Assembly: GCA_020721205.1 (NCBI GenBank) | Contig: DYNF01000038.1 | Span: forward strand, 1 to 37,577 | DNA length: 37,577 bases | Source: Prochloron sp. SulCav_FS08_3_32_3330 | GTDB lineage: Bacteria; Cyanobacteriota; Cyanobacteriia; Cyanobacteriales; DYNF01 | Direction of reading: 5' to 3' | In this document: positions 15,036-35,831 of the stretch, piece after piece | Layout of the letters: each line of letters starts with the position of its first letter | Position numbering within the stretch: position 1 is the first letter of the stretch | Position numbers and translations under genes: made by a program | Notes under the pieces: generated by a model | Database searches by the model: none | Told to the model about the DNA's origin: nothing | What the model saw: only the letters and a program-made list of their open reading frames with translations

Positions 15036-15317
15036 TTAATAAACCTGATCATGAGAACCTAATGTTAATAAATTAATTCCTCGCTCATTACTATTAGGAT
15101 CATTGACAATTTCAAAAATAATACGATTACTATAATCAATAGAACATGACCAACATCCTTCCAAATCTCCTTTTAATTTATGGGTTTTTAAACTAGGATC
15201 AAAACAATTTTGAGATAGGTTTTCTAAAGTAGTTTCAACAGAAAAATGAAGGCTCGGATTTTGGCGAATTAAACGCTTAAAATCTCTAACAAATCTCTTA
15301 CTCCAAAATAATTTCAT
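15036..15317 (-). CDS. RelE/YafQ-type toxin of a type II toxin-antitoxin pair
   Basis: The 93-residue basic protein has the RelE/ParE-superfamily layout. It starts MKLFWSKRFVRDFKRLIRQNP, has a central LKGDLEGCWSCSIDYSNRIIFEI strand pair, and ends LLTLGSHDQVY. Members usually cleave mRNA on the ribosome, though some are gyrase-directed ParE toxins. The LKG...W...Y.NRIIF and GSHD.VY pattern favours the mRNA-interferase branch. The gene starts within the last codon of the upstream antitoxin gene (4-bp ATGA overlap), the classic antitoxin-first order. Length and motifs look intact, so it is probably functional. Confidence 0.88.
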   Translation of the reverse strand: MKLFWSKRFVRDFKRLIRQNPSLHFSVETTLENLSQNCFDPSLKTHKLKGDLEGCWSCSIDYSNRIIFEIVNDPNSNERGINLLTLGSHDQVY

Positions 15318-15544
15318 TCTTCTTCTAACTCCGCCATTAAATCAGAAATTGTACCCGTTTTAACCTCTCCTGTAATAAATGCCTGACGAGATTCGTTCAC
15401 CGCTTCTACTAACTCCTTTCTCTGTTTTTCTCTCAGACGTTTTTGAATAATTGAAACTAATTGTTCTTGATCTTCATTAGACAAAGATTCTACCAGATCA
15501 ATTATTTGTTGAAAATTTGATGTTTTCAGATTTTGGACAAGCAT
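15314..15544 (-). CDS. Cognate antitoxin of the RelE-type toxin
   Basis: The 76-residue protein is helical and acidic at the C-terminus (SDLMAELEEE), with a central basic helix (IIQKRLREKQRKELVEAVNESR). This fits an antitoxin whose C-terminal tail wraps and neutralises the downstream toxin. No classical ribbon-helix-helix or helix-turn-helix signature is obvious, so autoregulatory DNA binding is not proven. Identification rests mainly on size, charge, position and the 4-bp overlap with the toxin gene. Confidence 0.85.
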   Translation of the reverse strand: MLVQNLKTSNFQQIIDLVESLSNEDQEQLVSIIQKRLREKQRKELVEAVNESRQAFITGEVKTGTISDLMAELEEE

Positions 15545-30973: not shown

Positions 30974-31546
30974 ATGCCTAATTTATATATAATTAGCGGT
31001 GCAAATGGTTCAGGCAAAACAACGACAGCTAAAGAAATCTTACCCTATTTTTTAGATGTTTACGAATATGTAAACGCCGATGAAATAGCAAAAGGAATTT
31101 CACCCTTTCGCCCTGAAAATGTAGCAATACAAGCAGGAAAATTAATGTTAAAAAGACTAGATTATTTAGTCAAAAATCAAATAGATTTTGCCTTTGAAAC
31201 TACCTTATCTGGATTAAATTATTTAAAATTTCTCAAACAATGTAAAATTAACAATTATCAAATAAACTTAATTTATTTTTGGTTAAAAAGTCCAAAACTT
31301 GCGATTGAAAGGGTAAAACAAAGAGTTAAAAGTGGAGGACATAATATTCCAGAAGATGTTATAATTAGACGTTATTATCGAGGACAAAAAAACTTAATTA
31401 AATCCTATTTCCCTTTATGTGATACATGGATTATTTATGATAACTCTAGTTTACCAGTTCAACTAATAGCAACTTATACATCAGAAAATATTACTATTTA
31501 TCAATCTCAAATATGGTCAAAAATACAGGAAATTAACAATGAATAA
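30974..31546 (+). CDS. Zeta-toxin-like P-loop kinase
   Basis: Zeta toxins phosphorylate UDP-N-acetylglucosamine and block cell-wall synthesis; related chromosomal kinases may have other substrates. The 190-residue protein has Walker A GANGSGKTT at 9-17 and the catalytic-type Asp36 in YVNADEIAKGISPFRPE. It also has FAFETTLSG (about 73-81) and the ISPFRPENVA and LKSPKLAIERVKQRVKSGGHNIPEDVI blocks, followed by RRYYRGQKNL. All are characteristic of this family. It ends in an 8-bp overlap with a small gene, which suggests translational coupling of a toxin-antitoxin-like pair. It lies between sufB and sufC on the same strand and is probably an insertion into the suf locus. Confidence 0.85.
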   Translation: MPNLYIISGANGSGKTTTAKEILPYFLDVYEYVNADEIAKGISPFRPENVAIQAGKLMLKRLDYLVKNQIDFAFETTLSGLNYLKFLKQCKINNYQINLIYFWLKSPKLAIERVKQRVKSGGHNIPEDVIIRRYYRGQKNLIKSYFPLCDTWIIYDNSSLPVQLIATYTSENITIYQSQIWSKIQEINNE

Positions 31547-31715
31547 TAATCAACTTTGTGAATTACATCAAAAAATTAATCAAGGAGTCGAAAAAGCGAT
31601 CAATAAAGCAATAGAAAGACATAAAAAATTAGGTGAATCTATTGCCATTTGGGAAAAGGATCAAGTAGTGGTTTTATCCGCCGATCAAATTCCGAAAATA
31701 TCAAATAATTCTTAA
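31539..31715 (+). CDS. 58-residue partner of the zeta-like kinase, candidate antitoxin
   Basis: The ATG at 31539 overlaps the end of the kinase gene by 8 bp. The 58-residue product has a helical first part (QLCELHQKINQGVEKAINKAIERHKKLG). It then has a short beta segment (ESIAIWEKDQVVVLSADQIP). This helix-then-strand layout, with KLGESIAIW... and VVLSADQI, is one I associate with small proteins next to zeta-like kinases in cyanobacteria. An antitoxin role is inferred from overlap and size only. A strong terminator follows 15 bases after the stop. Confidence 0.75.
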   Translation: MNNNQLCELHQKINQGVEKAINKAIERHKKLGESIAIWEKDQVVVLSADQIPKISNNS

Positions 31716-32655: not shown

Positions 32656-34032
32656 ATGACATTAACAACTAATTTAATCTTTAAACCTGAAGAAATTTCC
32701 TTAAAAGGAGCTTATTTAGGCAAAATTTTAAGACAATGTGAAGAACAAAAAACCGTTTTTAATGTAGAGTTAACGGGATGGATTAAAGAGTTACGTCAAA
32801 AAGCGGCTTATGATGTAGTAAAATCCGATTTACCTACAACAAAAGATGAAGAATGGCGTTTTACGGATCTATCTTCTTTATTAGAAAATGAGTTTAAAAT
32901 TGCATCAGAAACGAAGCTTTCTCTATTCGATCTTGAGGCTTTTATTTATCCAGAAGCCGCCCAAAGTCGTCTCGTTTTTGTTAATGGAATTTATGCCCCT
33001 AAATTATCAAATATATCCGCAATTCCTGAAGGAATTTATGTAGGAAATTTAGAAAATTTAGACTTAACAAATAGCCAAAAATTAGTTAAATATTTAGGGC
33101 AACAAGAAGGCTCAAATGAAGTTTTTACCGCTTTAAATACTTCCGGCTTAAAAGATGGGGCAATTATTTGGTTTAATAAAAATATAGAGACTAAAACCCC
33201 GATTCATCTCTTATTTTTATCAGTTCCCTCTTTTGATCATCCTACGATTGATCAACCGCGCACTTTAATCGTGGCTGAAGCAAACTCACAAATTGAAATA
33301 ATTGAACAATACGGAGCGATCACTTTAGGATGCTCCGATCGTCCTCAGAATCATCCTTATTTTACCAATGCGGTAACGGAGATATTTTTGGAAGATAACT
33401 CTCAAGTTAAACATACGAGGATTCAGAGGGAATCGGGCGACGGTTTTCAGATTGGAAAAACCGCTATTTCTCAGGCAAGAAATAGTCGTTATTCCTGTGT
33501 AGAAGTCAATCTAGGGGCAAAATTATTCCGCCATAATTTAGAAGTTAATCAACAGGGAGAACAAACAGAAACTACTCTTAATGGTTTAACTATTTTAGGC
33601 GGGAGACAAGTGGGAGATACTCACAGTGTAATCAGTTTAAATCATCCTCACGGTACAACTAATCAATTACATAAATATATAATTGACGAATTTGCTCAGG
33701 GTATTTTTAGCGGGAAAGTTTCTGTTCCTCATAACGCTCAATTAACAAATGCTAATCAATTAAACCGTAATTTATTATTATCGCCAAAAGCGAGGATTCA
33801 GACGAAACCTGAGTTACAGATTACGGCGGATAACGTCAAATGTTCTCATGGTGCCACTGTGAGTCAATTAGAGGATGATGAAATCTTTTATTTACGCAGT
33901 CGGGGCTTAAATGAGTATGATGCGCGTCATTTATTAATAGATGCTTTTGCGGGGGAAATTTTAGATTTATTACCGATTGAATCCTTAAATCACCGCTTAA
34001 CTCAATGTGTTGCTTGTCGCACTTTAGAGTAA
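32656..34032 (+). CDS. sufD: Fe-S cluster assembly protein SufD
   Basis: SufD is the SufB paralogue that completes the SufBC2D complex and is needed for iron entry. The 458-residue protein shows the SufB/D beta-helix C-terminal half: EEWRFTDLSSLLE near 75, GAITLGCSDRPQ, GDTHSVISLNHPHGTTNQLHKYIIDEFAQGIFSGKV and SQLEDDEIFYLRSRGLNEYDARHLLIDAFAGEIL. The start is set by the AGGAGG inside sufC. After its stop come a degenerate inverted repeat (34044 onward) and a Phd/YefM-type antitoxin gene before sufS. Confidence 0.96.
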   Translation: MTLTTNLIFKPEEISLKGAYLGKILRQCEEQKTVFNVELTGWIKELRQKAAYDVVKSDLPTTKDEEWRFTDLSSLLENEFKIASETKLSLFDLEAFIYPEAAQSRLVFVNGIYAPKLSNISAIPEGIYVGNLENLDLTNSQKLVKYLGQQEGSNEVFTALNTSGLKDGAIIWFNKNIETKTPIHLLFLSVPSFDHPTIDQPRTLIVAEANSQIEIIEQYGAITLGCSDRPQNHPYFTNAVTEIFLEDNSQVKHTRIQRESGDGFQIGKTAISQARNSRYSCVEVNLGAKLFRHNLEVNQQGEQTETTLNGLTILGGRQVGDTHSVISLNHPHGTTNQLHKYIIDEFAQGIFSGKVSVPHNAQLTNANQLNRNLLLSPKARIQTKPELQITADNVKCSHGATVSQLEDDEIFYLRSRGLNEYDARHLLIDAFAGEILDLLPIESLNHRLTQCVACRTLE

Positions 34033-34139: not shown

Positions 34140-34433
34140 ATGGATGCCGTTTATTATCAAACTTTACCACAAAAATTAGAACAAACTATGGATCAAGTTT
34201 GTGATGATCATAACCCAATTATTATTACTAGAAATGATAAACCATCAGTGGTTATGATGTCTTTAGAAGATTATAATTCATTAGAGGAAACTGCTTATTT
34301 ATTAAGAAGTCCGAAAAATGCTCAACGTCTGTTAGAATCAATCGCAAAATTAGAAAATATAGAAAAGAAAAAAATAAATTATGAACCAATTAGTAAAGTG
34401 AAGGGAATTTTAAAACAAAAAAAAAAGATTTAA
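34140..34433 (+). CDS. Phd/YefM-type antitoxin, probably orphaned and frameshifted at its end
   Basis: Phd/YefM antitoxins bind DNA through an N-terminal domain and neutralise a downstream toxin with the C-terminal tail. The 97-residue protein fits: a start near MDAVYYQTLPQKLEQTMDQV, then the diagnostic DDHNPIIITRNDKPSVVMMSLEDYNSLEETAYLL. An AAGGAG ribosome-binding site lies about 9 bases upstream. The end is odd: KQKKKI lies on a run of ten A (34417-34426). Reading one base further in the neighbouring frame gives DLINYSKEIRQEWE and a stop overlapping the ATG at 34468, a classic antitoxin/toxin junction. The tail has probably been lost by slippage, and the toxin is only a remnant. Confidence 0.85.
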   Translation: MDAVYYQTLPQKLEQTMDQVCDDHNPIIITRNDKPSVVMMSLEDYNSLEETAYLLRSPKNAQRLLESIAKLENIEKKKINYEPISKVKGILKQKKKI

Positions 34434-34467
34434 TTAATTATAGTAAAGAAATACGTCAGGAGTGGGA

Positions 34468-34545
34468 ATGAAATATCTTTATAACACTAATGTTTTTCTA
34501 AAGATGATCAATATGAATTATAATAAAATAACTATTAAATTTTAA
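34468..34545 (+). pseudogene. Remnant of a PIN (VapC-like) toxin
   Basis: The 25-codon frame starts MKYLYNTNVFLKM. It strongly recalls the start of PIN-domain toxins (MKYLLDTNV...), but the first acidic metal ligand Asp is replaced by Asn. The rest reads as AT-rich noise and ends at 34545. The ATG overlaps, as ATGA, the stop that the antitoxin would have if its poly-A frameshift were corrected. This is most simply a decayed toxin truncated shortly after its start. A homologue of the full protein is not present in the window. Confidence 0.55.
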
Positions 34546-34571: not shown

Positions 34572-35831
34572 ATGCTAACCACAGAAAAAACGATCGCTGA
34601 TCAAGTTCGTACCGATTTTCCGATTTTAAATCAAAAAATTCATGGGAAACCTTTAATTTATTTTGATAGTGCCGCTAGTTCCCAAAAACCGACTTTTGTT
34701 TTAGATAAATTAAGGCATTATTATGAACATGATCACGCTAATGTTCACAGAGGAATACATACTTTAAGTAACAGGGCAACGGAAGCTTATGAAGGGGCAA
34801 GGGATAAGGTAGCAGAGTTTATTAATGCCCGTTTTCGAGAGGAAATTGTATACACAAGAAATGCGTCGGAAGCTATTAATTTAGTTGCTTATACTTGGGG
34901 TTTACAAAACTTAAAGGAAGGGGATGAAATTATTTTATCTATGATGGAACATCATAGTAATATTGTGCCTTGGCAAATGATTGCACAAAAAACGGGAGCT
35001 ATTCTTAAATATGTGGGTTTAACTGAGGAAGAAACTTTTAATTTTGAGGAATATAAATCTTTACTTTCTGATCAAACTAAACTCGTTTCTATTGTTCATG
35101 TTTCTAATATGTTGGGTAATATTAATCCCGTTGAAGATATTATTAAATTAGCTCATGAAAAGGGGGCAAAAGTATTAATTGATGCTTGTCAAAGTACACC
35201 CCATTTACCTATAAATGTACAGGAAATGGATTGTGATTGGTTGGTGGCTTCTGGACATAAAATGTGTGCGACAACGGGCATCGGTTTTTTATATGGAAAG
35301 AAAGAAATATTAGAGGAAATGCCTCCCTTTTTAGGGGGTGGAGAAATGATTGAAGAAGTGTTTTTAGATCATTCTATTTATGGAGAATTACCTCATAAAT
35401 TTGAAGCGGGAACTCCCGCTATTGGTGAGGCAGTCGCCCTTGGTGCGGCGGTAGATTATTTAACTAATATTGGCATGAATAAAATTCATCAATATGAGGA
35501 ACAATTAACGGCTTATTTATATGAAAAATTAGCGAAAATTGAGAATCTTAAAATTTACGGAATTAAACCCACAAAAGAAGGAAAAGGCAGGTCATCTTTA
35601 ACTTCTTTTAATGTTAAAAATATTCACGGGAATGATTTAGCAACTATGTTAGATCAAGAGGGTATTGCGATTCGATCGGGTCATCATTGTACTCAACCAA
35701 TCCACCGTTATTTTAATATTTCGGGTAGTGCGAGGGCAAGTTTATATTTTTATAATACTTTTGCAGAAATTGACCGTTTTATTGAAGTTTTACAGGAAAC
35801 AATTGATTTTTTTACCACTATGATAGAATAA
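34572..35831 (+). CDS. sufS: Cysteine desulfurase SufS
   Basis: SufS is a group II pyridoxal-phosphate enzyme that takes sulfur from cysteine and passes it on for Fe-S assembly. The 419-residue protein begins with a typical [29 protein letters not shown]. Other blocks are the [10 protein letters not shown] segment, the PLP lysine in [20 protein letters not shown], and the active-site cysteine in the [14 protein letters not shown] loop (group II type). Normally last in sufBCDS, it is separated from sufD here by the antitoxin/remnant cassette. No clear promoter stands out immediately upstream. Confidence 0.97.

What the first reader, a model, noticed from the sequence alone, without database searches (positions are those of the whole stretch)
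34140..34545. Decay of a Phd-PIN module captured at a poly-A frameshift
The antitoxin stops just after a run of ten A. Skipping into the adjacent frame extends it by a coherent tail (DLINYSKEIRQEWE) that ends in an ATGA overlap with a frame starting MKYLYNTNVF. That start resembles PIN toxins (MKYLLDTNV) but lacks the first catalytic Asp, and the frame soon ends. Toxin loss and antitoxin tail loss fit a stepwise decay, leaving an antitoxin that may still bind DNA.
Basis: partly seen in the sequence, partly recalled or inferred. Interest (0 to 1): 0.65.

Follow-up and report, generated by a model that had tools for sequence, protein, structure and literature searches.

The report
Decayed chimeric antitoxin beside truncated toxin
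Between two iron-sulfur assembly genes of what appears to be a cyanobacterium lies the broken remnant of a toxin-antitoxin pair whose antitoxin is a fusion of two unrelated antitoxins, a small example of how such modules are recombined and then lost.

Summary
A 97-aa ORF (34140-34433) stops after ten A; the -1 frame continues as DLINYSKEIRQEWE and meets, through ATGA, a 25-codon frame MKYLYNTNVF.... Homologues of this tail with a PIN-toxin start behind it occur in other genomes: 42 places in 39 genomes of the order. In two, raw DNA matches window 34374-34497 at 79% over 125 columns with a single one-nucleotide gap at the A-run; there the tail reads through...KKKDLIAHTQKLRQEWE, into a full PIN toxin, MKYLYDTNIF.... 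So toxin truncation, Asp-to-Asn change and loss of the antitoxin tail are supported.

Residues 1-73 are YefM, whose relatives are followed by the toxin YoeB (108 of 115 loci), not PIN. The tail belongs to another antitoxin family without a Pfam or NCBIfam match. The gene is a chimera joined in frame near residues 74-78, found in no other genome searched. Its one departure from strongly conserved YefM positions is R10 to P, a residue reported essential for operator binding, so 'may still bind DNA' is doubtful. Decayed modules and hybrid systems are known; interest is modest.

The parts
34140..34358 (+). Residues 1-73: YefM-type N-terminal (dimerisation/DNA-binding) domain; R10 replaced by P, R31 kept
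   Evidence: PF02604 E 4.5e-24; NF008499 YefM E 1.2e-26, residues 1-73, under its cut-off; E. coli YefM 2a6q E 3.1e-19; R10P
34359..34373 (+). Residues 74-78: junction between the two antitoxin parts
   Evidence: YefM similarity ends at residues 71-79 in most of the best hits, with some longer; donor DNA similarity starts at 34374
34374..34415 (+). First part of the donor antitoxin's C-terminal tail, INYEPISKVKGILK, still in the ORF's frame
   Evidence: 32 of 42 nucleotides identical to L262 (INYDKIAQVRGILK); DNA match
34417..34426 (+). Run of ten A, site of the frame break (one-nucleotide gap against homologue L261)
34427..34468 (+). Out-of-frame rest of the donor tail, DLINYSKEIRQEWE; contains GAGTGGGA (34460-34467), a Shine-Dalgarno-like stretch before the toxin start
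   Evidence: GAGTGGGA at the end of the antitoxin frame in 23 of 42 homologous loci
34431..34433 (+). Stop codon that ends the 97-aa ORF
34468..34545 (+). Truncated PIN toxin frame (25 codons): codons 1-10 (DNA match to 34497) homologous to PIN toxins, Asp6 changed to Asn, the rest without detected PIN similarity
   Evidence: full-length homologue P0002 is PF01850 E 8.1e-10; two more homologues PF01850 E 2.5e-16 and 2.9e-13
32656..34032 (+). sufD, upstream neighbour
   Evidence: PF01458 E 1.5e-79
34572..35831 (+). sufS, downstream neighbour
   Evidence: PF00266 E 1.7e-146

Best explanation
This is the relic of a hybrid type II toxin-antitoxin module inserted between sufD and sufS. Recombination joined, in frame and close to the border between the two halves of each antitoxin, the YefM head of a YefM-YoeB module to the toxin-binding tail of an unrelated PIN-toxin antitoxin, bringing along the coupled start of its PIN toxin. 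The hybrid probably worked for a time (inferred): YefM head for dimerisation and operator binding, tail for holding the PIN nuclease. It then decayed. Shown: all but ten codons of the toxin are gone, its first Asp is Asn, the antitoxin tail is cut off by a one-nucleotide length difference at an A-run, and Arg10 of the YefM head is Pro. Inferred: the toxin was lost first, since losing the tail first would have freed the toxin; what is left has no partner and is drifting.
For: Head: PF02604 and YefM NF008499 over residues 1-73. YoeB within 400 nt downstream in 108 of 115 YefM loci, 100 of 101 of those at 50% identity or more. Tail: 42 places in 39 other genomes, 39 of 42 with a different N-terminal half, 41 of 42 with a PIN-start motif within 60 nt; no YefM match in 46 tail loci (some the same place) and no such tail or PIN in 118 YefM loci. 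DNA: 79.2% over 34374-34497 with one gap at the A-run, 105 bits against at most 41 in 500 shuffles. Both modules occur in the same genome in G052 and G096, with full-length YoeB and PIN frames; in G009 the YoeB frame is short (34 aa). Insertion: approximate sufD-sufS gap 539 bp here, -29 to 337 bp in the 26 relatives where both genes were seen. A join of two copies in assembly is unlikely: the tail matches nothing else in this genome. Toxin frames under 100 aa follow the antitoxin in 8 of 39 distinct places (my count), so toxin decay is common in this family.
Against: No YefM-tail hybrid was found in 388 genomes of the order or 386 of the phylum (overlapping samples, own genome in both; the one new hit, in G481, is weak, broken and without YefM). 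That the fusion ever worked is therefore inferred; a dead-on-arrival fusion is not excluded. No relative of the same family was among the genomes shown, so neither the empty site nor intermediate stages can be seen. Protein-level constraint on the transferred segment is weak on few codons (pN 0.17, pS 0.30 over 38 codons against L262; pN exceeds pS after the A-run). The YefM head departs at only 1 of 28 strongly conserved positions, which is little decay for a dead gene.
Confidence: 0.8

Rival explanations
1. The frame break is an assembly or sequencing error in a homopolymer: the chimeric antitoxin is intact in the organism, and only the toxin is lost (a solitary hybrid antitoxin).
For: Draft assembly of 209 contigs; ten-A homopolymer; the out-of-frame tail is as well conserved as the in-frame part (34 of 42 against 32 of 42 nucleotides identical to L262).
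Against: A recent mutation in a replication-prone A-run explains the same data; the Asp-to-Asn change and the toxin truncation next to it show that the module is decaying anyway.
Confidence: 0.25
2. The A-run is a slippage site: RNA polymerase (or the ribosome at A AAA AAG) slips, so both the 97-aa form and a longer form with the tail are made.
For: The -1 frame after A AAA AAG leads straight into the conserved tail. Precedent: an eleven-A run before a stop in Citrobacter rodentium tssM1 is a functional transcriptional slippage site (PMC4256274, abstract); avoidance of A/T runs in bacterial genomes sets in at nine in a large proportion of genomes (PMC1088944, passages).
Against: No partner toxin is left beside it; no close copy of this PIN toxin elsewhere in the genome (best 31% identity); no stimulatory RNA fold (z 0.22); L261 has no comparable run (alignment), so the site is not conserved there. 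PMC1088944 also notes that AT-rich genomes without such avoidance may have suppressed slippage; this was not tested here.
Confidence: 0.12
3. The 97-aa protein is kept as a stand-alone regulator, binding DNA through its YefM head and acting on its own promoter and perhaps on sufS.
For: The head is complete and departs at 1 of 28 conserved positions; it sits between co-oriented suf genes. By eye a TTGACT-N16-TATAAA stretch precedes the ORF.
Against: The one departure is Arg10, reported as essential for DNA binding by YefM-YoeB (PMC4803016, passages). No TGTACA core in the 120 bp upstream; it is present in 66 of 101 relatives, but only in 7 of 23 of the whole-genome loci L002-L039, so this is weak. 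The promoter scan did not report the by-eye site and found no more sites than shuffles give.
Confidence: 0.1
4. An ordinary Phd-PIN module decayed in place, without any fusion.
For: Phd-family antitoxins are known next to PIN genes (PMC2701414, passages); tail and toxin start are genuinely PIN-associated.
Against: The head is closest to the YoeB-partnered YefM, and no PIN-partnered homologue with that head was found among 42 places.
Confidence: 0.08

Closest known systems
YefM antitoxin of YefM-YoeB (Phd/YefM superfamily, PF02604, NF008499)
   Same: Residues 1-73; 59-69% identity to the best hits in related genomes
   Different: YoeB-binding C-terminus replaced by another antitoxin's tail; no yoeB downstream; R10 is P; below the NF008499 cut-off (92.7 against 121 bits)
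Antitoxin paired with a PIN toxin in related genomes (MPIIKIPKQYL-like start, RQEW[DE] end, then MKYLYDTN[IV]F); three members gave no credible Pfam or NCBIfam match
   Same: Last 32-34 residues, ATGA-type overlap, GAGTGGGA and first ten toxin codons
   Different: N-terminal half absent, tail out of frame, toxin reduced to ten codons with Asp6 changed to Asn
VapBC15 of Synechocystis PCC 6803 (ssr2201/slr1327)
   Same: Small antitoxin without known conserved domain, overlapping a PIN toxin gene by 11 nt, in a cyanobacterium (PMC5924515, passages)
   Different: Its sequence was not seen here, so whether it belongs to the donor antitoxin family is untested
Hybrid or composite toxin-antitoxin systems (YefM-YoeB itself; TasA-TasB)
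   Same: Mixing of antitoxin and toxin families (PMC4803016, passages; PMC1626090, abstract)
   Different: As described there, the associations are between whole antitoxins and whole toxins; here the swap is inside the antitoxin

Membership tests
YefM-YoeB module | YefM-type N-terminal domain | tested here: met
   PF02604 84.5 bits (cut-off 29.8); NF008499 over 1-73 but under its cut-off
YefM-YoeB module | YoeB gene directly downstream | tested here: not met
   Only a 25-codon PIN-start frame, then sufS; no YoeB match at this site in the own-genome search
YefM-YoeB module | Operator-contacting R10 and R31 | tested here: not met
   R31 kept, R10 replaced by P; role of the two from PMC4803016, passages
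VapBC (PIN toxin with DNA-binding antitoxin) | PIN toxin with its acidic active site | tested here: not met
   Ten codons left, first Asp is Asn; homologues are PIN by PF01850
VapBC (PIN toxin with DNA-binding antitoxin) | Antitoxin tail of the PIN-paired family in frame | tested here: not met
   Similarity crosses the A-run with a frame change
VapBC (PIN toxin with DNA-binding antitoxin) | Neutralisation of the toxin by the antitoxin | not testable with these tools
   Needs expression in a laboratory strain
   No YefM match in 46 tail loci; 39 of 42 tail places have another N-terminal half, the other 3 are two fragments and one different sequence
Programmed frameshift gene | Slippery run conserved among homologues, with a stimulator | tested here: not met
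   No comparable run in L261; fold z 0.22; transcriptional slippage itself not testable here

The most novel reading that the evidence does not exclude
A natural domain swap inside an antitoxin: the YefM dimerisation and DNA-binding head was grafted in frame onto the neutralising tail of an unrelated, unmodelled antitoxin and so re-aimed from the ribonuclease YoeB to a PIN nuclease; the hybrid worked as a module before it decayed.
Probability: 0.45. Interest if true: 0.5.

Novelty: new variant of a known kind. Interest (0 to 1): 0.32.

Why it matters
Toxin-antitoxin families are known to mix and match, in the papers seen here as whole antitoxins beside whole toxins. This locus shows an exchange inside the antitoxin, with 124 bp of donor DNA still recognisable on one side and a full YefM head on the other, caught with the toxin already gone. 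It also points to a PIN-paired antitoxin family, found in 39 of 387 other genomes of the order sampled, for which three members gave no credible Pfam or NCBIfam match.

Tried and rejected
Rejected: ordinary Phd-PIN decay (head is YefM). Rejected: programmed ribosomal frameshift with a stimulatory fold. Set aside as chance: similarity of 34490-34529 to the middle of the donor antitoxin (E 0.007 under loose scoring), because AT-rich stretches of this genome in L009 and L002 score better (E 6e-4, 0.002). Led nowhere: L178, a DNA hit, read, shows no sufS context that I could see and looks like chance AT-rich similarity; solved structures for the donor antitoxin family, best E 0.19; plasmid search with the tail, one weak hit in a Calothrix plasmid, E 0.2. 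Literature: the listings showed me no title or abstract start describing a YefM-head/PIN-tail antitoxin; the library is limited and listings are short, so absence from print is not claimed. Age test by substitution counts was too small to decide.

Counts: the 42 places are all non-own places. YefM loci: the 118 loci L002-L119 fetched were given to, 115 matched YefM. The conservation count used 74 distinct sequences of 110 that matched; the others were below 50% identity, incomplete or duplicates. Alignment A2 contains the window's own read-through as one of 8 rows; the DNA match does not depend on it. The 41 of 42 PIN count rests on a short motif test within 60 nt, not on a full-length toxin; several toxin frames are short. 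That the organism is a cyanobacterium is inferred: four Photo_RC (PF00124) matches in the genome, a family that rings only in Synechococcus elongatus among 14 controls, and a Rubisco accumulation factor in the window; no record name was seen.

Full report
What is there. The window is a whole contig (C94) of a 4.73 Mb, 209-contig draft genome; the 99 relatives shown are of the same order but other families. The organism is most likely a cyanobacterium (inferred: four Photo_RC matches; Rubisco accumulation factor in the window). The neighbours are sufD (32656-34032) and sufS (34572-35831). Between them lies a 97-aa ORF, 34140-34433, ending ...ILKQKKKI. Ten A stand at 34417-34426. The frame one base back reads DLINYSKEIRQEWE and stops at 34471, overlapping by ATGA a frame that reads MKYLYNTNVFLKMINMNYNKITIKF and stops at 34545.

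Is it more than chance? Raw DNA of the window, with nothing joined, matches two genomes of another family (G259, G316; loci L261, L262) at 79.2% identity over 125 columns, window 34374-34497, with one gap of one nucleotide at the A-run. The score is 105 bits; the best of 500 dinucleotide shuffles is 41, and 27 of 42 homologous loci beat that. The similarity starts at residue 79 of the ORF, runs through the A-run, the frame change and the ATGA, and stops after toxin codon 10.

The tail and the toxin. In L261 and L262 the same stretch reads INYDKIAQVRGILKAKKKDLIAHTQKLRQEWE, then MKYLYDTNIFIDYF..., in L261 a 127-residue protein that matches PIN, PF01850, at E 8.1e-10. Two further toxin homologues match PIN at E 2.5e-16 and 2.9e-13. 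A profile of the tail found it in 40 of 388 genomes of the order, own included, and in 24 of 386 of an overlapping phylum sample, own included; the only new hit there, in G481, is weak and broken. Of the 42 places outside this genome, 41 have a PIN-start motif within 60 nt; 39 have the same kind of N-terminal half (MPIIKIPKQYL-like), two are fragments (L264, L265) and one has another upstream sequence (L258). GAGTGGGA, a Shine-Dalgarno-like stretch written by the codons of the conserved RQEW[DE] end, closes the antitoxin frame in 23 of 42. Pfam and NCBIfam gave no credible match for three members of this antitoxin family. In the window the toxin has Asn where the recognisable toxin starts printed have Asp ([YF]DT[NS]), and nothing recognisably PIN-like after codon 10. 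Downstream frames shorter than 100 aa occur in 8 of the 39 distinct places printed (my count), so toxin loss is frequent in this family.

The head. Residues 1-73 are YefM: PF02604 E 4.5e-24, YefM model NF008499 E 1.2e-26 but below its cut-off, E. coli YefM structure 2a6q E 3.1e-19. Of 118 loci given, 115 have a YefM match and 108 of these have YoeB within 400 nt downstream; at 50% identity or more it is 100 of 101. No YefM locus carries the tail or this PIN toxin, and no tail locus carries YefM. The antitoxin is therefore a fusion of two unrelated antitoxins, joined in frame between residues 73 and 79. This is about where their two-part architecture would be expected to divide: the review PMC4803016 describes the YefM N-terminus as globular and its C-terminus as disordered until it binds YoeB (passages). 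For the donor antitoxin the division is inferred. An assembly artefact from two copies is unlikely because the tail was found nowhere else in this genome.

State of the head. Among 74 distinct homologues, 28 of 73 columns are at least 90% conserved, and the window departs at one: position 10, Arg in 71 of 74, Pro here. Leave-one-out counts for the 74 have a median of 0 and a maximum of 8, so one departure is not unusual in itself; its place is what matters. Arg10 and Arg31 are reported as essential for DNA binding by YefM-YoeB (PMC4803016 citing Bailey and Hayes 2009; passages). Arg31 is kept. TGTACA, the operator core described for E. coli, is absent from the 120 bp upstream here; it is present in 66 of 101 relatives but in only 7 of 23 of the whole-genome loci L002-L039, so this says little.

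How it most likely arose. Both parental modules are found in the order, and two genomes (G052, G096) hold both with full-length toxin frames; in G009 the YoeB frame is short. The approximate sufD-sufS gap is 539 bp here and -29 to 337 bp in the 26 relatives where both genes were found, 3 more lacking sufD in the stretch held, so an insertion in this lineage is likely. That the fusion is in frame, near the domain border, with the coupled toxin start behind it, fits a hybrid that worked; that none of the other genomes sampled has it leaves open that it never did. The order of decay is inferred from the logic of such modules: the toxin must go before the neutralising tail. Out-of-frame tail codons are as similar to L262 (34 of 42 nucleotides) as in-frame ones (32 of 42), so the frame break is recent, an error in a draft assembly, or bypassed by slippage. 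Substitution counts do not prove constraint (pN 0.17, pS 0.30 over 38 codons; pN above pS after the A-run).

Rivals. Slippage at A-runs is documented (PMC4256274 abstract; PMC1088944 passages), but the tail has no partner beside it: the closest PIN match of this genome is 31% identical to the intact homologue, while the same search recovers the toxin in G259 and G316. No RNA fold supports programmed ribosomal frameshifting. A stand-alone regulator is possible but R10P speaks against it.

Novelty and value. Hybrid and composite systems are known (PMC4803016 passages; PMC1626090 abstract; PMC2701414 passages), and loss of toxins is seen here in relatives too. A swap inside the antitoxin, between YefM and an unmodelled PIN-paired antitoxin, is a new variant of that theme as far as the listings show. 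Interest is modest because the product is a relic in one genome.

Noticed in passing
window 30974-31546 and 31539-31715, +: A Zeta-toxin-like gene (PF06414 E 2.4e-13) with a small overlapping 58-aa ORF lies between sufB and sufC, so the suf cluster carries two toxin-antitoxin-type insertions.
   Followed up: partly
window 15036-15317 and 15314-15544, -: A YafQ/YoeB-like toxin frame (PF15738 E 3.3e-8) overlapping a 76-aa ORF in an antitoxin-like arrangement, with no break seen in either frame.
   Followed up: no
L002 (G000 contig C113) and L003 (contig C127): Two other YefM-like antitoxins of the same genome have no YoeB detected next to them; one is followed by a 23-codon stub. Loss of the toxin may be recurrent here.
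   Followed up: partly
L258 (genome G277): A PIN-paired antitoxin with the conserved tail but a different upstream sequence in place of the usual N-terminal half, possibly another swap or a decayed head.
   Followed up: no
L126, L200, L206, L210, L214, L218, L263, L264: Downstream toxin frames shorter than 100 aa behind antitoxins that mostly look intact: toxin decay is frequent in this family.
   Followed up: partly
G000 whole genome: 54 PIN-domain matches at E 0.01 or better in a 4.73 Mb genome.
   Followed up: no
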